DNA from: Bacillus sp. NP157
GTDB taxonomy: Bacteria > Pseudomonadota > Gammaproteobacteria > Xanthomonadales > Rhodanobacteraceae
DNA length: 64,000 nucleotides
Direction of reading: 5' to 3'
NCBI GenBank assembly: GCA_018889975.1
Contig: CP076546.1
Span: 3,410,001 to 3,474,000 of the forward strand
The position numbers were made by a program, and so were the translations under genes. Under the pieces are notes generated by a model. That model did not search any database, had not been told where the DNA came from, and saw nothing but the letters and a program-made list of their open reading frames with translations. Shown here piece after piece: positions 1 to 57,027 of the stretch (position 1 is its first letter; the number at the start of each line of letters is the position of its first letter).

Positions 1-273
1 GAGCTTGAGCTGGGCGAACCGCTTGGCACTGCGCGGGTTGATGACCGAGACCGGCAATCCAGCCCGATCCAGCGCGATGGCCAGGTCCAGGTGATAGATC
101 CCGGTCGCTTCCATCACCACCCAGGAAGGCCGTAAATCCAGAAGCTTCCTGGCCAGCCGTGCATGTCCTGCCGGGGTTTGCTCGAACTTCCCCAGCGCAA
201 CACCCTTGCCGTTGTCATACGAGGCCACGGCGCAGTCGCGCGCGCTGACGTCCAATCCGATCGACATGACCAT
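1..273 (-). CDS. IS110-family transposase, N-terminal part
   Basis: This is the first 91 residues of the same transposase as at 28274-29269, cut by the window edge. The visible part is the RuvC-like DEDD half: the GLD motif holds Asp8 and the MEATGIY motif holds Glu55. The start ATG at 273 follows a GGATGTAAGGG ribosome-binding region. The amino acid sequence is identical to copy 2 over the shared part, which indicates recent transposition or gene conversion. Whether this copy is complete cannot be seen here. Confidence 0.92.
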   Translation of the reverse strand, partial: MVMSIGLDVSARDCAVASYDNGKGVALGKFEQTPAGHARLARKLLDLRPSWVVMEATGIYHLDLAIALDRAGLPVSVINPRSAKRFAQLKL

Positions 274-331
274 CCCTTACATCCTCCGCGAGTTAGCGTG
301 AGAATGGATCCGGCTCCCCGACCCCGCATTT

Positions 332-509
332 TTTGCCCCTGCAACCTTGTATGCGAAGTCCCTCGCGGGCTTCTGGATACTCTCCGCAGTTGGCAATGGG
401 GCGGGGGGCCACTCTACAGGCGAAGTCAGGAACATCCTGCTTCAAGGAGCGCGCGGCCTCCCCGGAATCCTTCGCACACCCCCCGGATGGGAGGCACCGC
501 CAAGATACA
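332..509 (-). ncRNA. IS110 bridge RNA, copy 1 (predicted)
   Basis: This is the mirror of the leader RNA at 28038-28215. The predicted guides fall at 445-454 (left target), 414-419 (right target), 376-384 (left donor) and 346-352 (right donor), all on the minus strand. The sequence agrees with copy 2 throughout, so the target specificity is the same, and this copy is also inserted in a REP (510-529). Assignment as a bridge RNA follows the architecture published for IS621; transcription is inferred. Confidence 0.75.
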
Positions 510-529
510 AGGAGCGCGCCTGCGCGCGA
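510..529 (+). repeat. REP remnant at IS110 copy 1 junction
   Basis: The 20 bases are the AG core and the palindrome of the local 23-bp REP (GGAGCGCGC, CT, GCGCGCGA). The TGT head that normally precedes AGG is displaced by the IS. The region 530-635 that follows has no gene and no clear signal; it leads into the 3' end of the EamA-type gene. Confidence 0.8.
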
Positions 530-26186: not shown

Positions 26187-27047
26187 TCAGGCGGCGATGG
26201 CGACGCGCATCTTCTTCATGGCATTCGCCTCGATCTGGCGGATGCGTTCGGCCGACACGCCGTACTCGTCCGCAAGGTCCTGCAGGGTGGCCTTGTTGTC
26301 TTCGGCCAGCCAGCGGCGCTGGATGATGTCGCGCGAACGATCGTCGAGCTTCGACAGGGCACTGCCCAGGGCGCTCATCTGATTGTTCGAGGCGTCTTCT
26401 TCCGCCAGGTTCTCGTACGGATCCGCACCGTCGTCGACCAGGAAGGCGGCCGGTGCCGGCTTCTCGTCTTCGTCGGCGTCGGCCGGGGCTTCGAAGCCCA
26501 CGTCACGACCCGAAAGGCGCGATTCCATCTCACGGACCGTGGCTTCCGGCACGCCCAGGTCGTTCGCGACCACGCGAACTTCCTCGGCGTTCATCCAGCC
26601 CAGGCGCTTCTTGCTCTTGCGCAGGTTGAAGAACAGCTTGCGCTGGGCCTTGGTGGTGGCGACCTTCACGATGCGCCAGTTGCGCAGGATGAACTCGTGC
26701 ATTTCGGCACGGATCCAGTGCACGGCGAAGCTGACAAGGCGCACGCCCTGGTCCGGATCGAAGCGCTTCACGGCCTTCATCAGGCCGATGTTGCCTTCCT
26801 GGATCAGGTCGGAGAGCTGCAGGCCGTAGCCGTTGTAGCCGCGGGCGACATGCACCACGAAGCGAAGGTGGGACATCACCAGCTGCTTGGCGGCGTCGAG
26901 GTCGGCGTCGTCGTGGAAGCGCCGCGCAAGCGTCTGCTCCTCGTCAAGGCTGAGCACCGGGATGCGATGGACGGCCGCGATGTAGGAATCCAGACTGCCA
27001 ACGACGCTCGGTAGCCCGTAGTTACGGGTGGCGAGGGCTTGGGACAT
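26187..27047 (-). CDS. rpoH: RNA polymerase sigma-32 factor RpoH
   Basis: A 286-residue heat-shock sigma factor. Region 2 has [20 protein letters not shown] and [19 protein letters not shown] (about 57-100). The RpoH-box-like segment reads [15 protein letters not shown] (about 134-148), and region 4 ends with [24 protein letters not shown]. It directs transcription of chaperone and protease genes. A strong AGGAGG lies ten bases before the ATG. The promoter region carries a CIRCE operator, suggesting repression by HrcA. Confidence 0.96.
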
Positions 27048-27079
27048 GTGTGGAACCTCCTGAAAGGTATCGGTGCAGG

Positions 27080-27106
27080 TTAGCAGTCCCGGTATGAGAG
27101 TGCTAA
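27080..27106. promoter_or_regulatory. CIRCE operator (HrcA site) before rpoH
   Basis: On the minus strand TTAGCACTC, nine bases, then GACTGCTAA: 17 of 18 arm positions match the established CIRCE consensus TTAGCACTC-N9-GAGTGCTAA. It is 33 bp upstream of the rpoH start. Confidence 0.85.
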
Positions 27107-27123
27107 CCCTTGCCAGGGTTCAA
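27094..27123 (-). promoter_or_regulatory. candidate rpoH promoter overlapping CIRCE
   Basis: The -35 TTGAAC (27118-27123) and -10 TCTCAT (27094-27099) are 18 bp apart. The -10 box falls inside the CIRCE spacer, so bound HrcA would block polymerase. The match to the sigma-70 consensus is moderate. Confidence 0.45.
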
Positions 27124-27189
27124 TCTTCTTAGCTGTACTCAATGGTACAGAAATACCCCCGGGATGTCCAGCGGACTCCCGACGGTATT

Positions 27190-27345
27190 CAGGAGGCAGA
27201 CGGCTGAGCGGAGGGCCCGGCAGCCTTGGACGGGCGTAGGTGCCCGTTCGTAAAGAGAAATGGTGCCTGAGAAAGTCGATCTCAAGTGCAACGCGAGCGT
27301 AGGCACCGACCGTAGTCAGAGCCTACCCGGCGCCATGGCCCCGGC
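27190..27345 (+). other. stem-rich intergenic segment, no gene seen
   Basis: The gap 27048-27407 has, beyond the rpoH promoter, a stretch with several perfect stems. ACGGGC and GCCCGT flank GTAGGT (27230-27247). GGTGCCT (27263-27269) pairs with AGGCACC (27301-27307). GTAGGC (27299-27304) could instead pair with GCCTAC (27321-27326). The last two are mutually exclusive. This may be a leader or small RNA, but no known family was recognised. Confidence 0.3.
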
Positions 27346-27407
27346 CCACGCGCGCCTCAGCGGTGACCGACAGCGGCCATGCGGCAGCCCCGCCTAGTCT
27401 TCCCAGC

Positions 27408-27863
27408 ATGTCTTTCCATTACGCCCCGCTCCCCGGCACGGTCCTGATTTGCCGCTTCCCGCCGCCGGGAGCGGTTCCCTCGGGCGAGATGGCCAAAACC
27501 CGCCCAGTGATCGTGGTGAGCCGAAGGCTGAGAGGCAGGCCGGGCCTGGTGAATATCGTCCCGATCAGCATGACTGCGCCGCTGCGCGAAGACCGCTGGC
27601 ACGTTCGCATACCCGCCGAGGCGCTGCCTGCAGGATGGCGCGACCGTCCCGGTGAACGTTGGGCGAAGTGCGACATGGCGACCGTGGTAAGTCTCGAGCG
27701 GCTGTCGCAGGCTCGCGTACCTACGCACCGCAACGGCATGCAAACACCGCTGTCGCGCATCAGTGAGGAAACGCTCAGGGAAATCCGCAAGGCGTTGGCT
27801 TACGTCTTCCATATTTCCCCGGTATTAGAAGGAGTTCTTGCGTACCCGGAGGCAACGCAGTAG
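27408..27863 (+). CDS. PemK/MazF-family toxin-like protein (no antitoxin seen)
   Basis: A 151-residue protein with the PemK/MazF fold. Typical parts are PGTVLICRF near the N-terminus, KTRPVIVVSRR (about 32-42), the NIVPISMTAP strand (about 52-61), and KCDMATVVSLERL (about 88-100). Family members are mRNA endoribonucleases paired with an antitoxin, but no small gene stands directly upstream or downstream. An alternative GTG start at 27363 is less likely because the homology starts with SFHYAPLPG. A terminator follows at 27974-28008. Confidence 0.75.
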   Translation: MSFHYAPLPGTVLICRFPPPGAVPSGEMAKTRPVIVVSRRLRGRPGLVNIVPISMTAPLREDRWHVRIPAEALPAGWRDRPGERWAKCDMATVVSLERLSQARVPTHRNGMQTPLSRISEETLREIRKALAYVFHISPVLEGVLAYPEATQ

Positions 27864-27973
27864 CTTCCAACGTGTCCGTCGACGGCAACGTCGATTTGAA
27901 GACCTCGATGCGCGATCCATGGTGGCACTCGAGGCGGGCCGGAATACGATGACAAGTGATCCGGTTGCTAACT

Positions 27974-28008
27974 AGCCCGCGTGCTTCGGCCGCGGGCTTT
28001 TGTCTTTT
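27974..28008 (+). terminator. Rho-independent terminator
   Basis: An 8-bp stem AGCCCGCG / CGCGGGCT with a nine-base loop (27974-27998), followed by TTTGTCTTTT. It ends transcription from the PemK-like gene, 110 bp after its stop, and separates it from the IS110 element. Confidence 0.85.
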
Positions 28009-28017
28009 CGGGTCCGG

Positions 28018-28037
28018 TCGCGCGCAGGCGCGCTCCT
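28018..28037 (-). repeat. REP remnant at IS110 copy 2 left junction
   Basis: TCGCGCGCAGG and CGCGCTCCT make the palindrome part of a REP. The ACA that should follow is found at 29287-29289, on the other side of the IS. Joining the two restores a consensus REP. Confidence 0.9.
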
Positions 28038-28215
28038 TGTATCTTGGCGGTGCCTCCCATCCGGGGGGTGTGCGAAGGATTCCGGGGAGGCCGCGCGCTC
28101 CTTGAAGCAGGATGTTCCTGACTTCGCCTGTAGAGTGGCCCCCCGCCCCATTGCCAACTGCGGAGAGTATCCAGAAGCCCGCGAGGGACTTCGCATACAA
28201 GGTTGCAGGGGCAAA
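28038..28215 (+). ncRNA. IS110 bridge RNA, copy 2 (predicted)
   Basis: The leader folds into two internal loops of the same design. Target loop: outer stem GGGG/CCCC plus GGCC/GGCC (28084-28092 with 28137-28144), left guide GCGCGCTCCT (28093-28102), inner hairpin GAAG-CAGGA-TGT-TCCTG-A-CTTC (28104-28125), right guide CTGTAG (28128-28133). Donor loop: left guide GAGAGTATC (28163-28171), inner hairpin GAAG-CCC-GCGA-GGG-A-CTTC (28174-28192), right guide ATACAAG (28195-28201). The target guides match the REP half-sites; the donor guides match the IS right end (29277-29285) and left end (28036-28042). The order agrees with the published IS621 bridge RNA. Confidence 0.85.
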
Positions 28216-28273
28216 AAATGCGGGGTCGGGGAGCCGGATCCATTCTCACGCTAACTCGCGGAGGATGTAAGGG

Positions 28274-29269
28274 ATGGTCATGTCGATCGGATTGGACGTC
28301 AGCGCGCGCGACTGCGCCGTGGCCTCGTATGACAACGGCAAGGGTGTTGCGCTGGGGAAGTTCGAGCAAACCCCGGCAGGACATGCACGGCTGGCCAGGA
28401 AGCTTCTGGATTTACGGCCTTCCTGGGTGGTGATGGAAGCGACCGGGATCTATCACCTGGACCTGGCCATCGCGCTGGATCGGGCTGGATTGCCGGTCTC
28501 GGTCATCAACCCGCGCAGTGCCAAGCGGTTCGCCCAGCTCAAGCTCAAGGGCACCAAGACCGACACGATCGATGCGGGGTTGCTTGCCGAGTATGGCGAG
28601 GCGCTCAAGCCGGCACGCTGGATCGCACCGGAGCAGGCGGACCTGGCCCTGCGGGACCTGGGACGGCAGGTGAACCGGCTGTTGGGGGAGCGGGTCCGCG
28701 CGAAGAACCGCCTGCACGCCCTGACTGCCAAGAAGGGCACGCATGTGCTGCTGCTCGAGGACGAAACCGAGGCCGTCGCCACCCTCGATCGGCGCATCGA
28801 ACGCCTGCGCGGTGCGATGCGCCAGCAGATCGACACCGATCCGGTGCGCCAAGCCCAGCTTCGCCACATGACCGCAGCCCCGGGCATCGCCGAGGTCTCG
28901 GCGATGGCGGTACTCGCTGAACTGGCCATGCTTCCCAGCACTATGAAAGCGCCGCAGGTCAGCCGCCATGCGGGCCTGGACGTTTGTCACACCCAATCGG
29001 GCACGAGCGTCCACGGACGGCCGCGGCTAAGCAAGGGCGGAAACACCTACCTGCGCGCAGGCATGTACATGCCTGCGCTGGTTGCCGTGCGCTACGACCC
29101 CTTGGTCAAAGCCTTCTACGAACAGCTGCTTCGTCGCGGAAAGGCCAAGCGCCAGGCCCTCGCGGCAGTCATGCGCAAATACCTCACCGGGCTCTGGGCT
29201 TGCCTGCGCGACAACGAAAACTTCGACGTCACCAAGCTTTTTAGCCCAGAGCACCTTAGGCAGGGTTGA
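28274..29269 (+). CDS. IS110-family transposase (bridge-RNA-guided recombinase)
   Basis: A 331-residue complete transposase. The N-terminal RuvC-like domain has the DEDD residues Asp8 (IGLDVS), Glu55 (MEATGIY), Asp97 and Asp100 (TKTDTIDA). A coiled-coil linker follows (about 120-190). The C-terminal Tnp_20 domain begins at MTAAPGIAEVSA and carries the predicted catalytic Ser242 in TQSGTS, then RLSKGGNTYLR. It cuts and joins DNA as a DEDD/Ser recombinase guided by the leader RNA. The ATG is preceded by GGATGTAAGGG; nothing is broken, so the copy looks active. Confidence 0.96.
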   Translation: MVMSIGLDVSARDCAVASYDNGKGVALGKFEQTPAGHARLARKLLDLRPSWVVMEATGIYHLDLAIALDRAGLPVSVINPRSAKRFAQLKLKGTKTDTIDAGLLAEYGEALKPARWIAPEQADLALRDLGRQVNRLLGERVRAKNRLHALTAKKGTHVLLLEDETEAVATLDRRIERLRGAMRQQIDTDPVRQAQLRHMTAAPGIAEVSAMAVLAELAMLPSTMKAPQVSRHAGLDVCHTQSGTSVHGRPRLSKGGNTYLRAGMYMPALVAVRYDPLVKAFYEQLLRRGKAKRQALAAVMRKYLTGLWACLRDNENFDVTKLFSPEHLRQG

Positions 29270-29284
29270 CCGGGAAGAGAGTAT

Positions 29285-29980
29285 CTACAGAGTGGCGCGG
29301 GGCGGGAGGGACCAGTCGATGGCGGGTTCGCCGCGGGCTTCGAGGTAGGCGTTGGCCTTGGCGAAGTGGCCGCAGCCCATGAAGCCGCGATGCGCGGACA
29401 GCGGTGAGGGGTGCACGCTGCGCAGGATGCAGTGGCGCTTGCCGTCGATCAGCTGGCCCTTCTTCTGCGCGTGGCTGCCCCAGAGCATGAAGACCAGGCC
29501 TTCGCGCTCGCGGTTGAGAACATCGATCGCCGCGTCGGTGAAGCCTTCCCAGCCACGGCCCTGGTGCGAGGCCGCCTGCCCGGCTTCCACGGTAAGCACC
29601 GCGTTGAGCAGCAGCACGCCACGATCGGCCCAGGGCGTGAGGCAGCCGTGGTCGGGACGCGGGATGCCGAGGCTGGCCTCGATTTCCTTGAACATGTTCT
29701 GCAGGGACGGCGGCACGCGTACGCCCGGCTGCACGGAGAAGCTCAAGCCATGCGCCTGGCCCGGACCGTGGTAAGGATCCTGCCCCAGGATCACGACGCG
29801 CACCTTGTCGAATGGCGTGTGCGCGAACGCGTTGAAGATCTCAGGCCCCGGCGGGTAGATTTCCTTGCCCTGGGCTTTCTCGTTGCGCAGGAATTCGGAG
29901 AGCGCGAGCATCTCCGGACGATCGAGGTAATCGCCGATCCGCACCTTCCACGACGCCTCGAGCCGCACGCGATCGTTCAA
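29285..29980 (-). CDS. ung: uracil-DNA glycosylase
   Basis: A 231-residue family-1 UDG that removes uracil from DNA at the start of base excision repair. It has the water-activating motif [18 protein letters not shown] (about 67-84) and the minor-groove loop [11 protein letters not shown] (about 190-200). The start overlaps the response regulator gene by four bases. The TAG stop (29285-29287) uses the CT core and the A of a REP, so the inserted IS leaves the protein unchanged. Confidence 0.97.
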
Positions 29981-30816
29981 GCGTCGACCTTCGTGCGCAG
30001 GTGCAAGGCCACGCGCAGCTGGAACAGCAGCTTCGTGATCAGCAACTTTTCTTCCACGGGTTTCTCGACGAGGTCGTTCGCACCGGCGCGCAGCAACGCG
30101 GCCTGGTTCGCGGGATTCTCGTCGCCCGTCATGATCAGCGTAGGCAGCCTGCCCTTGCCGTAGCCGAATTCGTTGCGGATGCGCTCGACGAGGTCGCCGC
30201 CGGTCAGCTCGCCCTTCAGGCTCACGTCGGTCAACACTATGTCGGCACCGACCTGGCCGCGGGCGTGGGCCGCGCGCAGGAATTCGATCGCATCCTCGGC
30301 ACTGATCACGTGATGCACGGTGAGGCCGTACTTCTCCATCATGCGGCGCGTGGCGAGCGCGACGACGCGGCTGTCTTCGACGTAAAGCACCTCGCCCTCC
30401 GCGCCGCCCTCGGGCCGCACGTAGCCGCGGATGAACTCGGCCAGCGCCTCGAAGCCCAGCGACTTGTCGAAATAGTCGGTGACGAACTCACCGAGTTCAC
30501 GACGGTGCAGGCGCTGTTCGACATCGCCGGATACGACCACGATGGGCATGTAGATCTGCGGCGCGGACTCGCGCACGAAGCGCGCGAATTCCAGGCCATC
30601 CATGTCGGGCAGGCGAAGGGCCACGGTGACGAAATCGAACACGCCACGCTGCAGCTCGGCCTGCGCTTCGCTACCCGTGCCCACCGCGACGATCTCCACG
30701 CCGGGAACCTCCGCGGCGACGACACGCGAAATCAGCGAGCGCACGACCCGGGAGCCGTCCACGAGGAGGATGCGCGGCGTGGCGCCTGCGACACCGGAAC
30801 CGATATGCGAAGCCAC
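29977..30816 (-). CDS. response regulator with two receiver domains, first one degenerate
   Basis: A 279-residue protein with two tandem REC domains and no output domain. REC1 (about 14-130) has LLVDGSR and [12 protein letters not shown]: the phosphoacceptor Asp is replaced by Ala, while the Lys of YFDKSLG remains. REC2 (about 141-270) is intact, with [20 protein letters not shown] and VEKP. It likely acts as a phosphorylation-dependent adaptor. It lies between ftsX and ung, 15 bp from ftsX, and overlaps ung by four bases. Confidence 0.85.
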
Positions 30817-30831
30817 CCCCGCGCCCTCCCC

Positions 30832-31812
30832 TCAGGCCGCCGACGCGCGGCGGATCTGCCGGGCGCTGACCAGCCGTGCCCCGAGCCAGCCGAGCAAGGC
30901 CGACGCAAGGGGCACCGAAAGCAGCAGCCACGCAGGCAAGCCACCGAACTGCACGCTGCCGTCGTAGGCCGCCGCCAACCGACCGACCGGGCCGGCCATC
31001 GACAGCTCGATCGCCACGGCGAGCACCACCGCGAGGATCCCGGCGAACAGGCCGAGCCAGATGCCGGCATAAAGATAGGGGCGGCGCACGAACGGCCGGC
31101 TCGCGCCGATCAGCAGCAGGACGCCGATCTCCTCGGCACGGCTCTGGATATCGACGCGAATCGTGTTGCCGACGACCAGCAGCGCGGCGATGCCAAGCAG
31201 CAAGGCCAGGACGCTGGTGGCACGCGCACCCACGCCGACCACGGCATCCAGGCGCTGGCGCCATGCGCCGGTCTCCTGGACCATGTCCACGCCGGGCAAG
31301 GCCTTCATCGACTCGACGAGACGGTCGACCTCGGGCGCGGTGAGGTTGCCCTTCGGCTGCACGGTGAGCACGTAGGGCAGCGGATTGTCGTCGAGCGACT
31401 GCAGCGCGCCGGAGAAGCCCTGCACTTCCGCCAGCTCGGCGAGGCCATCCTTCGGCGTGCGCACGGTGATGTCCTGCACCTCGGGGCGCCCGCGCAACGC
31501 GGAGGCGGCCGTCTCGGCCATGGCCGCGTTCTGGCCAGGCTTCATGAAGGCACTGATCGTCTGGTTGCGGCCCAGCGCATCGCCCATGCGCTCGACGTTA
31601 CCCAGCAGCAGGTAGAAGGCGAGCGGCAAGGCCAGCGCCACGCCCATCACCGCGACCGTCATCAGCGTGGCCAGCGGGCGCGCGGCCAGCCGGCGCCAGC
31701 TGATCGACAGGCTCCACGCGTGGTGCTCGCGCCAGGCGCCGATGTGGCGCGGCGCGGTGCGGCGGGTCTTTTCCGGCTCGACCGGCCGGCGCGGTTCGCG
31801 GACGGTGTTCAT
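30832..31812 (-). CDS. ftsX: cell division protein FtsX
   Basis: A 326-residue inner-membrane protein of the FtsEX complex, which activates septal peptidoglycan hydrolases. A cytoplasmic N-terminus (1-50) leads to helix one (about 52-75), a periplasmic domain follows (about 76-200), and three helices come at about 205-225, 250-275 and 295-318. Its start overlaps ftsE by four bases (ATGA type). Confidence 0.93.
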   Translation of the reverse strand: MNTVREPRRPVEPEKTRRTAPRHIGAWREHHAWSLSISWRRLAARPLATLMTVAVMGVALALPLAFYLLLGNVERMGDALGRNQTISAFMKPGQNAAMAETAASALRGRPEVQDITVRTPKDGLAELAEVQGFSGALQSLDDNPLPYVLTVQPKGNLTAPEVDRLVESMKALPGVDMVQETGAWRQRLDAVVGVGARATSVLALLLGIAALLVVGNTIRVDIQSRAEEIGVLLLIGASRPFVRRPYLYAGIWLGLFAGILAVVLAVAIELSMAGPVGRLAAAYDGSVQFGGLPAWLLLSVPLASALLGWLGARLVSARQIRRASAA

Positions 31813-56935: not shown

Positions 56936-56958
56936 TCGCGCGCAGGCGCGCTCCTACA
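56936..56958 (-). repeat. REP palindrome, consensus copy
   Basis: A perfect REP 24 bp after the glk stop and the first element of a three-part REP cluster. Confidence 0.9.
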
Positions 56959-57005
56959 CGGTCGCGACACCCGTTGCGCGCTCCTACACGGTTGCGACAC
57001 CCGCT
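56946..57005 (+). repeat. 30-bp direct repeat made of REP tail plus spacer
   Basis: Two adjacent 30-bp units (56946-56975 and 56976-57005) differ at two positions. Each begins with GCGCGCTCCTACACGG and ends with CGACACCCG. The second holds half a REP, so the array grew by duplicating REP tail and spacer. Confidence 0.8.
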
Positions 57006-57027
57006 GTAGGAGCGCGCCTGCGCGCGA
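57005..57027 (+). repeat. REP palindrome, consensus copy
   Basis: A perfect copy opposite in orientation to 56936-56958, just before the stop of the SNF2 helicase gene. Confidence 0.9.

What the first reader, a model, noticed from the sequence alone, without database searches (positions are those of the whole stretch)
28038..28215. Readable bridge RNA in an IS110 element: both guide pairs match target and donor
The transposase leader has two internal loops with the same inner design (GAAG, stem, loop, stem, A, CTTC). In the first, GCGCGCTCCT equals the REP half left of and including the CT core, and CTGTAG is the complement of CTACAG across the core on the right. In the second, GAGAGTATC equals the IS right end and ATACAAG is the complement of the IS left end CTTGTAT. 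Seen directly: all four matches, their order and the CT core at both junctions. Known: IS621-type elements use such target and donor loops. Inferred: that this RNA is made and guides insertion into REPs.
Basis: partly seen in the sequence, partly recalled or inferred. Interest (0 to 1): 0.95.

Follow-up and report, generated by a model that had tools for sequence, protein, structure and literature searches.

The report
RNA-guided jumping gene in bacterial repeats
This is a small mobile DNA element that, by its sequence, encodes an RNA addressing it to a short palindromic repeat scattered hundreds of times through its host's chromosome; the mechanism is already known from E. coli, so this is a clean new example rather than a new kind of system.

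Summary
The window carries a 1249-bp IS110-group element (core CT at both ends; 331-aa DEDD recombinase). All four guide matches are exact; none of 20,000 shuffled leaders has all four in order. A covariance model built without the window sequence finds the RNA at 28080-28237 (151 bits) and, in the 64 kb, otherwise only in a second copy cut by the window's start. All five copies in the genome sit at the same REP nucleotide. Across 64 distinct RNAs the left target guide matches its own insertion site better than other elements' sites (5.25 v 3.13 of 7; 0 of 10,000 permutations), also with one entry per guide type. The circle junction reads TTGACC-17-TATCTT, as described for IS621. This is an IS621-like bridge RNA: a new member of a known kind. 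Less expected: 34 of 60 elements insert beside a hairpin (5 of 59 controls), and a second, 32%-identical IS110 uses the same REP site with its own guides. That guides generally address host high-copy repeats is not established: clear in two of seven hosts, absent in at least one. Transcription and activity were not tested.

The parts
28036..29286 (+). whole element with the CT core at both ends (1249 bp counting one core)
   Evidence: five copies of 1248-1249 bp with common ends
28028..28037 (+). left target half in the REP (GCGCGCTC) plus core CT
29285..29290 (+). core CT plus right target half ACAG; CTA at 29285-29287 is the complement of the TAG stop codon of the minus-strand ORF 29285-29980
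28043..28077 (+). predicted 5' hairpin of the bridge RNA
   Evidence: fold of the window sequence alone, (whole-leader z-score only -1.85)
28080..28237 (+). conserved bridge RNA body: target-binding and donor-binding stem-loops
   Evidence: 151.2 bits, E 5.5e-35, model R2 built without this sequence; covariation
28094..28102 (+). left target guide CGCGCTCCT
28104..28125 (+). inner hairpin of the target-binding loop
28128..28133 (+). right target guide CTGTAG
28163..28171 (+). left donor guide GAGAGTATC (equals the IS right end)
28174..28192 (+). inner hairpin of the donor-binding loop
28195..28201 (+). right donor guide ATACAAG (complement of the IS left end CTTGTAT)
28274..29269 (+). IS110-family DEDD recombinase, 331 aa
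29266..29271 (+). -35-like TTGACC in the right end (meets a -10 only in the joined circle)
28040..28045 (+). -10-like TATCTT in the left end; 17 nt from the -35 in the joined circle
1..510 (-). 5' part of a second copy cut by the window edge (the full copy is L005, identical to this one); bridge RNA at 310-467, REP beyond 510

Best explanation
An IS110-group insertion sequence whose left end encodes a bridge RNA. Its first internal loop pairs with both strands of the host REP at GCGCGCTC-CT-ACAG, and its second with the element's own joined ends GAGAGTAT-CT-TGTATC; the DEDD/Ser recombinase exchanges strands at the CT core, so circles insert at the head of REPs. Shown here: the four matches, site identity in 5 of 5 copies, guide-target covariation across relatives, RNA structural covariation, a junction promoter sequence, active-site residues. 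Inferred from IS621: that the RNA is transcribed from the excised circle, binds the recombinase and directs recombination.
For: Exact guides; all four in order in 0 of 20,000 shuffles. Five copies at one REP nucleotide. Model without the window sequence: 151 bits at 28080-28237, otherwise only the second copy in 64 kb at E up to 10. 66 distinct RNAs: 95.1% of cells paired against 78.0% shuffled, 28 of 34 pairs with two-sided changes, pairing falls to 46-52% when partners are slid by one column (the alignment was fitted to the model and leans towards it). Left guide v own site 5.25 of 7 against permuted 3.13, 0 of 10,000 (64 of 66); one entry per guide type 5.16 v 2.95 (38 types) and 5.39 v 2.83 (21 types), 0 of 10,000 each. 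Right guide 3.05 v 2.59 of 5, 0 of 10,000 (57 of 66). Left donor guide 1.46 v 1.28 of 3, 2 of 10,000 (56 of 66). Recombinase: NF033542 'RNA-guided transposase' 194.5 bits, cut-off 140; matches IS621 (8wt6) and ISCro4 (9t56) chains.
Against: No transcript or transposition data. The leader alone folds only modestly better than shuffles (z -1.85, 10 of 200 as good). The first guide position matches its target in only 25% of RNAs and the second in 59%. The right guide covaries weakly beyond CTAC. The permutations do not model relatedness, though counting each guide type once gives the same answer. No Rfam family matched in 27000-31000 at E up to 1. The 32-36% identical relatives of the same family (L009-L012, L015, L016) do not match the RNA model convincingly.
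Confidence: 0.95

Rival explanations
1. The leader RNA is a regulator of recombinase expression (as reported for ISPpu9) and the recombinase recognises the REP by itself; the guide matches are by-products.
For: ISPpu9, inserted in REPs of Pseudomonas putida, has two small RNAs regulating its transposase (start of abstract of PMC8450116 seen in a search listing). The leader lies directly upstream of the CDS.
Against: A regulator has no evident reason to carry both strands' target halves and both element ends, nor to covary with the flank of each relative. For IS621 the RNA is necessary for recombination in vitro (PMC11208160 section 7).
Confidence: 0.03
2. The guide-target identity is inherited sequence: a past insertion captured REP sequence into the leader, giving a match without function.
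For: The genome is full of this REP (656 copies of CGCGCTCCTAC), so capture is easy.
Against: The match occupies aligned positions of a conserved loop in RNAs with 38 different guide 7-mers that still follow their own sites; the right half is present as complement, not copy.
Confidence: 0.01
3. The system is real but these copies are now inactive; the pattern records past activity only (compatible with the best explanation of how it worked).
For: Two of five copies (L004, L007) share a 1-nt deletion in the C run of the target-loop stem. No activity data.
Against: Five of five recombinase frames are open and identical in translation, three copies are identical throughout, and active-site residues are present: recent spread.
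Confidence: 0.15

Closest known systems
IS621 of Escherichia coli (bridge RNA; PMC11208160, PMC11208158)
   Same: Left-end RNA with 5' hairpin plus target and donor loops, guide order, CT core, REP target, circle-junction sigma70-like promoter, DEDD plus Ser recombinase (PMC11208160 sections 5, 6, 7, 12 read; passages of PMC11208158).
   Different: Different REP (GCGCGCTCCTACAG) and ends. The right donor guide pairs as 7 contiguous bases; in IS621 nine RNA bases pair interruptedly with seven donor bases, and 27 of the 28 other elements aligned keep an extra base there.
ISPpu9 and ISPpu10 of Pseudomonas putida (PMC1525189, passages only)
   Same: IS110-family elements with 7/7 copies in REPs; two unlike transposases sharing one insertion point in the same genome, as here with L001/L002.
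   Different: Different host and REP; guides not described in the passages seen.
ISPa11 and other elements with seekRNAs (PMC11187229, passages only)
   Same: RNA from the long non-coding region names the target; ISPa11 targets Pseudomonas aeruginosa REPs.
   Different: ISPa11 is of the IS1111 type, with its RNA downstream of the transposase and the order of target matches reversed.
ISCro4 transposase (PDB 9t56)
   Same: Best sequence match among solved structures, E 1.2e-36.
   Different: Only the protein was compared.

Membership tests
IS110 family, IS110 group (IS621-like) | DEDD RuvC-like domain and Transposase_20 domain with conserved serine | tested here: met
   PF01548 84.2 bits and PF02371 58.2 bits, both over cut-off; D8, E55, D97, D100, S242 invariant in 8 aligned sequences, the window's included; E55, D97, D100 and S242 align with IS621, all five with ISCro4 (IS621 residues D11, E60, D102, D105, S241 from passages of PMC11208158)
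IS110 family, IS110 group (IS621-like) | bridge RNA in a long left end, not the right end (which marks IS1111) | tested here: met
   238 nt from core to CDS on the left, 15 nt from stop to core on the right; RNA found in the left end
IS110 family, IS110 group (IS621-like) | two internal loops pairing with target and donor, core included in all four pairings | tested here: met
   pairing itself is by sequence only
IS110 family, IS110 group (IS621-like) | scarless insertion at a shared core, site restored on joining the flanks | tested here: inconclusive
   Flanks of five copies join to uninterrupted REPs; no strain with the empty orthologous site was compared
IS110 family, IS110 group (IS621-like) | circle junction reconstitutes a promoter | tested here: met
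   Sequence only: TTGACC-17-TATCTT; TTGnnn-17-TATnnT at the same place in 44 of 54 elements, this one included, several of the ten misses being miscalled ends
IS110 family, IS110 group (IS621-like) | RNA is expressed, binds the recombinase and is needed for recombination | not testable with these tools
   needs RNA-seq and biochemistry

The most novel reading that the evidence does not exclude
This clade of IS110 elements is specialised on REP-like palindromes: its RNA carries a nearly fixed part that reads the complement of the GTAG head (the head described for REPs moved by RAYT transposases) and a variable part that reads the palindrome's 3' arm and is re-addressed to the host's own repeat after transfer between distant bacteria. 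Here the nearest relative found is 60% identical and in another order, no other genome among the 233 sampled in the family has one above 36% identity, yet the guide fits the host's 656-copy repeat in full. Probability lowered from an earlier 0.4 because a wider check of hosts was mixed.
Probability: 0.3. Interest if true: 0.55.

Novelty: new member of a known kind. Interest (0 to 1): 0.38.

Why it matters
It is a fully legible natural target/donor address in an element without a close relative in the collections searched, and it comes with 66 distinct related RNAs and most of their natural sites, useful for testing how bridge RNAs are re-addressed in evolution and why they favour palindromic repeats, which offer many insertion sites outside genes. 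For the study of these recombinases it offers a GC-rich natural guide and a contiguous donor guide to compare with IS621.

Tried and rejected
Rfam at E up to 1 over 27000-31000: no hit. Single-sequence queries of genome contigs and viral contigs found no relative, probably because the peptide patterns were too exact; an eight-sequence alignment then gave 80 loci, the best 80 of 269. MAFFT of unoriented copies was of no use because those loci keep contig orientation; redone in scripts. A phylum sample of 398 genomes showed no match at E up to 1e-55 outside the window's own genome.

The idea that every guide addresses a host high-copy repeat was checked in seven host genomes with exact patterns; copies are both strands, reversed-pattern control in brackets. 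CGCGCTCCTAC: G000 656 (30), six other hosts 0-6. CCCGACCTAC: G700 532 (61), others 1-14. CGCATCCTAC: G416 11 (7), others 0-2. TCGCTCCTAC, contained in the guides of G594, G715 and G761: 0, 1 and 4 copies, so not a repeat as read in full. With the shorter CGCTCCTAC: G334 68 (22), G761 236 (132), G715 82 (57), G594 36 (63). So: clear in two, enriched only for the shortened guide in G334 and G761, weak in G416 and G715, absent in G594.

Known faults in the counts. In some searches the right end was a pattern match, and in several rows (L048, L057, L064, L074, L076; L062) it fell inside the coding sequence; these rows were kept, which weakens the right-guide, donor-guide and promoter figures. In one search the left end was called without reference to the guide; a few rows (L114, L089, L105) look miscalled and were kept; 2 of 66 had no usable left end or guide (L103, L120). 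Two of the 64 are variants of the window's own element. In one search the left end among several candidates was the one best fitting the guide, and 60 of 66 could be used. One search was given 71 of the 80 loci (L062, L070, L072, L078, L107, L111, L116, L117, L122 left out, in most cases because the contig ends near the gene); 70 of 71 matched, L110 did not; 25 of these are seeds of the model. Over all 98 sources, 89 matched; the nine without were L001, L002, L009, L010, L011, L012, L015, L016 and L110. Of a larger genome search only the best few candidates per genome were scored. What is said of the literature rests on searches; the library lacks most subscription papers and preprints, so a published description of this element or clade is not excluded.

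Full report
What is there. The window lies in a 4.88-Mb single-contig genome (G000). At 28036-29286 is a 1249-bp IS110-family element with a 331-aa recombinase (28274-29269). The protein scores 194.5 bits against NCBIfam NF033542, 'IS110 family RNA-guided transposase', passes the cut-offs of both Pfam domains, and matches the chains of ISCro4 (E 1.2e-36) and IS621 (E 1.8e-34). Residues D8, E55, D97, D100 and S242 are invariant in an alignment of eight sequences and correspond to the DEDD and serine residues named for IS621 (PMC11208158, passages), D8 by way of ISCro4 since the IS621 alignment starts later.

The observation. The guide logic is the one published for IS621: left guides pair with the bottom strand, right guides with the top strand, and the core is included in each (PMC11208160 section 7). 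The target guide proper is 9 nt; the tenth matching base is part of an invariant scaffold.

The sites. The genome holds five copies, 1248-1249 bp: three identical, two sharing one deleted C in the target-loop stem. In 5 of 5 the left flank is GCGCGCTCC (once GTGCGCTCC) and the right flank TAC; joined flanks read as uninterrupted REPs. The window's own site lies against the stop codon of the minus-strand ORF 29285-29980, whose TAG is read on the other strand of the CTA shared by core and target.

Relatives. Among 233 genomes of the family (own included) no other genome has a relative above 36% identity (limit E 1e-30); in 299 genomes drawn from the order the best are 49%, in 369 of the class 41-60% over the full length, in 398 of the phylum none at E up to 1e-55 beyond the own genome; on plasmids the best is 48%. 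An alignment query gave 80 loci (best 80 of 269), 37-60% identical.

The RNA. Aligned leaders of 29 elements share a structure of two stem-loops with large internal loops; 18 of 34 pairs have two-sided changes. A covariance model built from 26 relatives without the window sequence finds it at 28080-28237 with 151.2 bits and at 310-467 on the minus strand (the second copy, cut by the window edge), and nothing else in the window at E up to 10. The larger search gave 90 matches in 89 of 98 sources. On their 66 distinct RNAs 95.1% of cells are paired, 28 of 34 pairs show two-sided changes and 433 cells change on both sides, against means of 78.0%, 19.9 and 140 in 500 column shuffles; sliding partners by one column drops pairing to 46-52%. 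This alignment was fitted to the model and so leans towards the structure. The lone window leader folds only slightly better than shuffles (z -1.85).

The decisive test. For 64 of the 66 distinct RNAs (two being variants of the window's own element) the 7 positions of the left target guide match the element's own flank at 5.25 positions on average, against 3.13 when flanks are permuted (sd 0.16; 0 of 10,000). Position by position the own/swapped identities are 0.25/0.19, 0.59/0.39, 0.72/0.53, 0.91/0.39, 0.92/0.32, 0.91/0.32 and 0.95/0.95: covariation is strongest in positions 4-6, and the base before the core is simply fixed. Counting each guide type once, so that related elements with one guide do not count many times, gives 5.16 v 2.95 (38 types) and 5.39 v 2.83 (21 types), again 0 of 10,000. 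For the right guide (57 of 66) the own/permuted score is 3.05/2.59 of 5 (0 of 10,000), carried by the fifth and sixth bases. The left donor guide shows weak covariation because ends hardly vary (1.46/1.28 of 3; 2 of 10,000). Some right ends were miscalled and kept (see Tried and rejected).

Expression. Joining right and left ends gives TTGACC-17-TATCTT; TTGnnn-17-TATnnT stands at the same place in 44 of 54 elements, this one included. For IS621 the same arrangement drives the RNA from the excised circle (PMC11208160 section 5). No expression data were available here.

What the target is. CGCGCTCCTAC occurs 656 times in this genome (reversed-pattern control 30) and 0-6 times in six genomes that host relatives; the window has 7 exact copies of GCGCGCTCCTAC and 3 with one mismatch (0.9 expected). 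One complete copy beside L001 reads GTAGGAGCGCGCCTGCGCGCGA, close to the Xanthomonas campestris REP GTAGGAGCGCGCTCGCGCGCGA in PMC2817692 (passages). The element enters within the GTAG head. One Y1-type transposase gene in the genome (30.5 bits) has three copies of GTAGGAGCGC around it, as expected of an enzyme that moves such repeats. Beyond this host, 34 of 60 distinct elements have a hairpin (score 6 or more) ending within 5 nt of the core on the left, against 5 of 59 control stretches 100 nt away and 3.3% of shuffles; 26 of 60 do not. So targeting the foot of palindromes is common in the clade. Whether guides generally address a host high-copy repeat is open: clear in G000 and G700, enriched only for a shortened guide in G334 and G761, weak in G416 and G715, absent in G594.

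A second system at the same address. Two copies of another IS110 element (L001, L002; protein 32% identical to the first) sit at the same REP nucleotide. Their leader contains ACGCTCC, CGTAG, ACAGTTGC and AAATAAG in the order expected of target and donor guides for their own ends, CTTATTT and ACAGTTGCT, and folds better than shuffles (z -2.67). The guide reading there is by eye, with no relatives compared, and its left target guide differs from the site at some bases; neither RNA model recognises it. A shared insertion point for two unlike IS110 elements has been noted for ISPpu9 and ISPpu10 (PMC1525189, passages).

Verdict. The system works like IS621 and meets the defining features that could be tested by sequence, one of them (the empty site) only inconclusively; it is a new member of a known kind, without a close relative in what was searched.

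Noticed in passing
L001, L002 (own genome, 1820300-1823737 and 2114853-2118290): A second IS110-family element, 32% identical in protein, inserted at the same REP nucleotide with what reads as its own set of target and donor guides.
   Followed up: partly
window 1-510, minus strand: Second copy of the same element cut by the window edge, also beside a REP.
   Followed up: yes
L124 (own genome, around 4521799-4522059): A Y1-type transposase gene (PF01797, 30.5 bits) with three copies of the REP head GTAGGAGCGC around it: a candidate RAYT for this REP.
   Followed up: partly
window 28195-28201: The right donor guide lacks one base kept by 27 of the 28 other aligned elements (L033 lacks it too), so it pairs with the left end as 7 contiguous bases rather than with a skipped base.
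   Followed up: partly
window 56946-57017: Three REP heads within 72 bases, two on one strand and one inverted.
   Followed up: no
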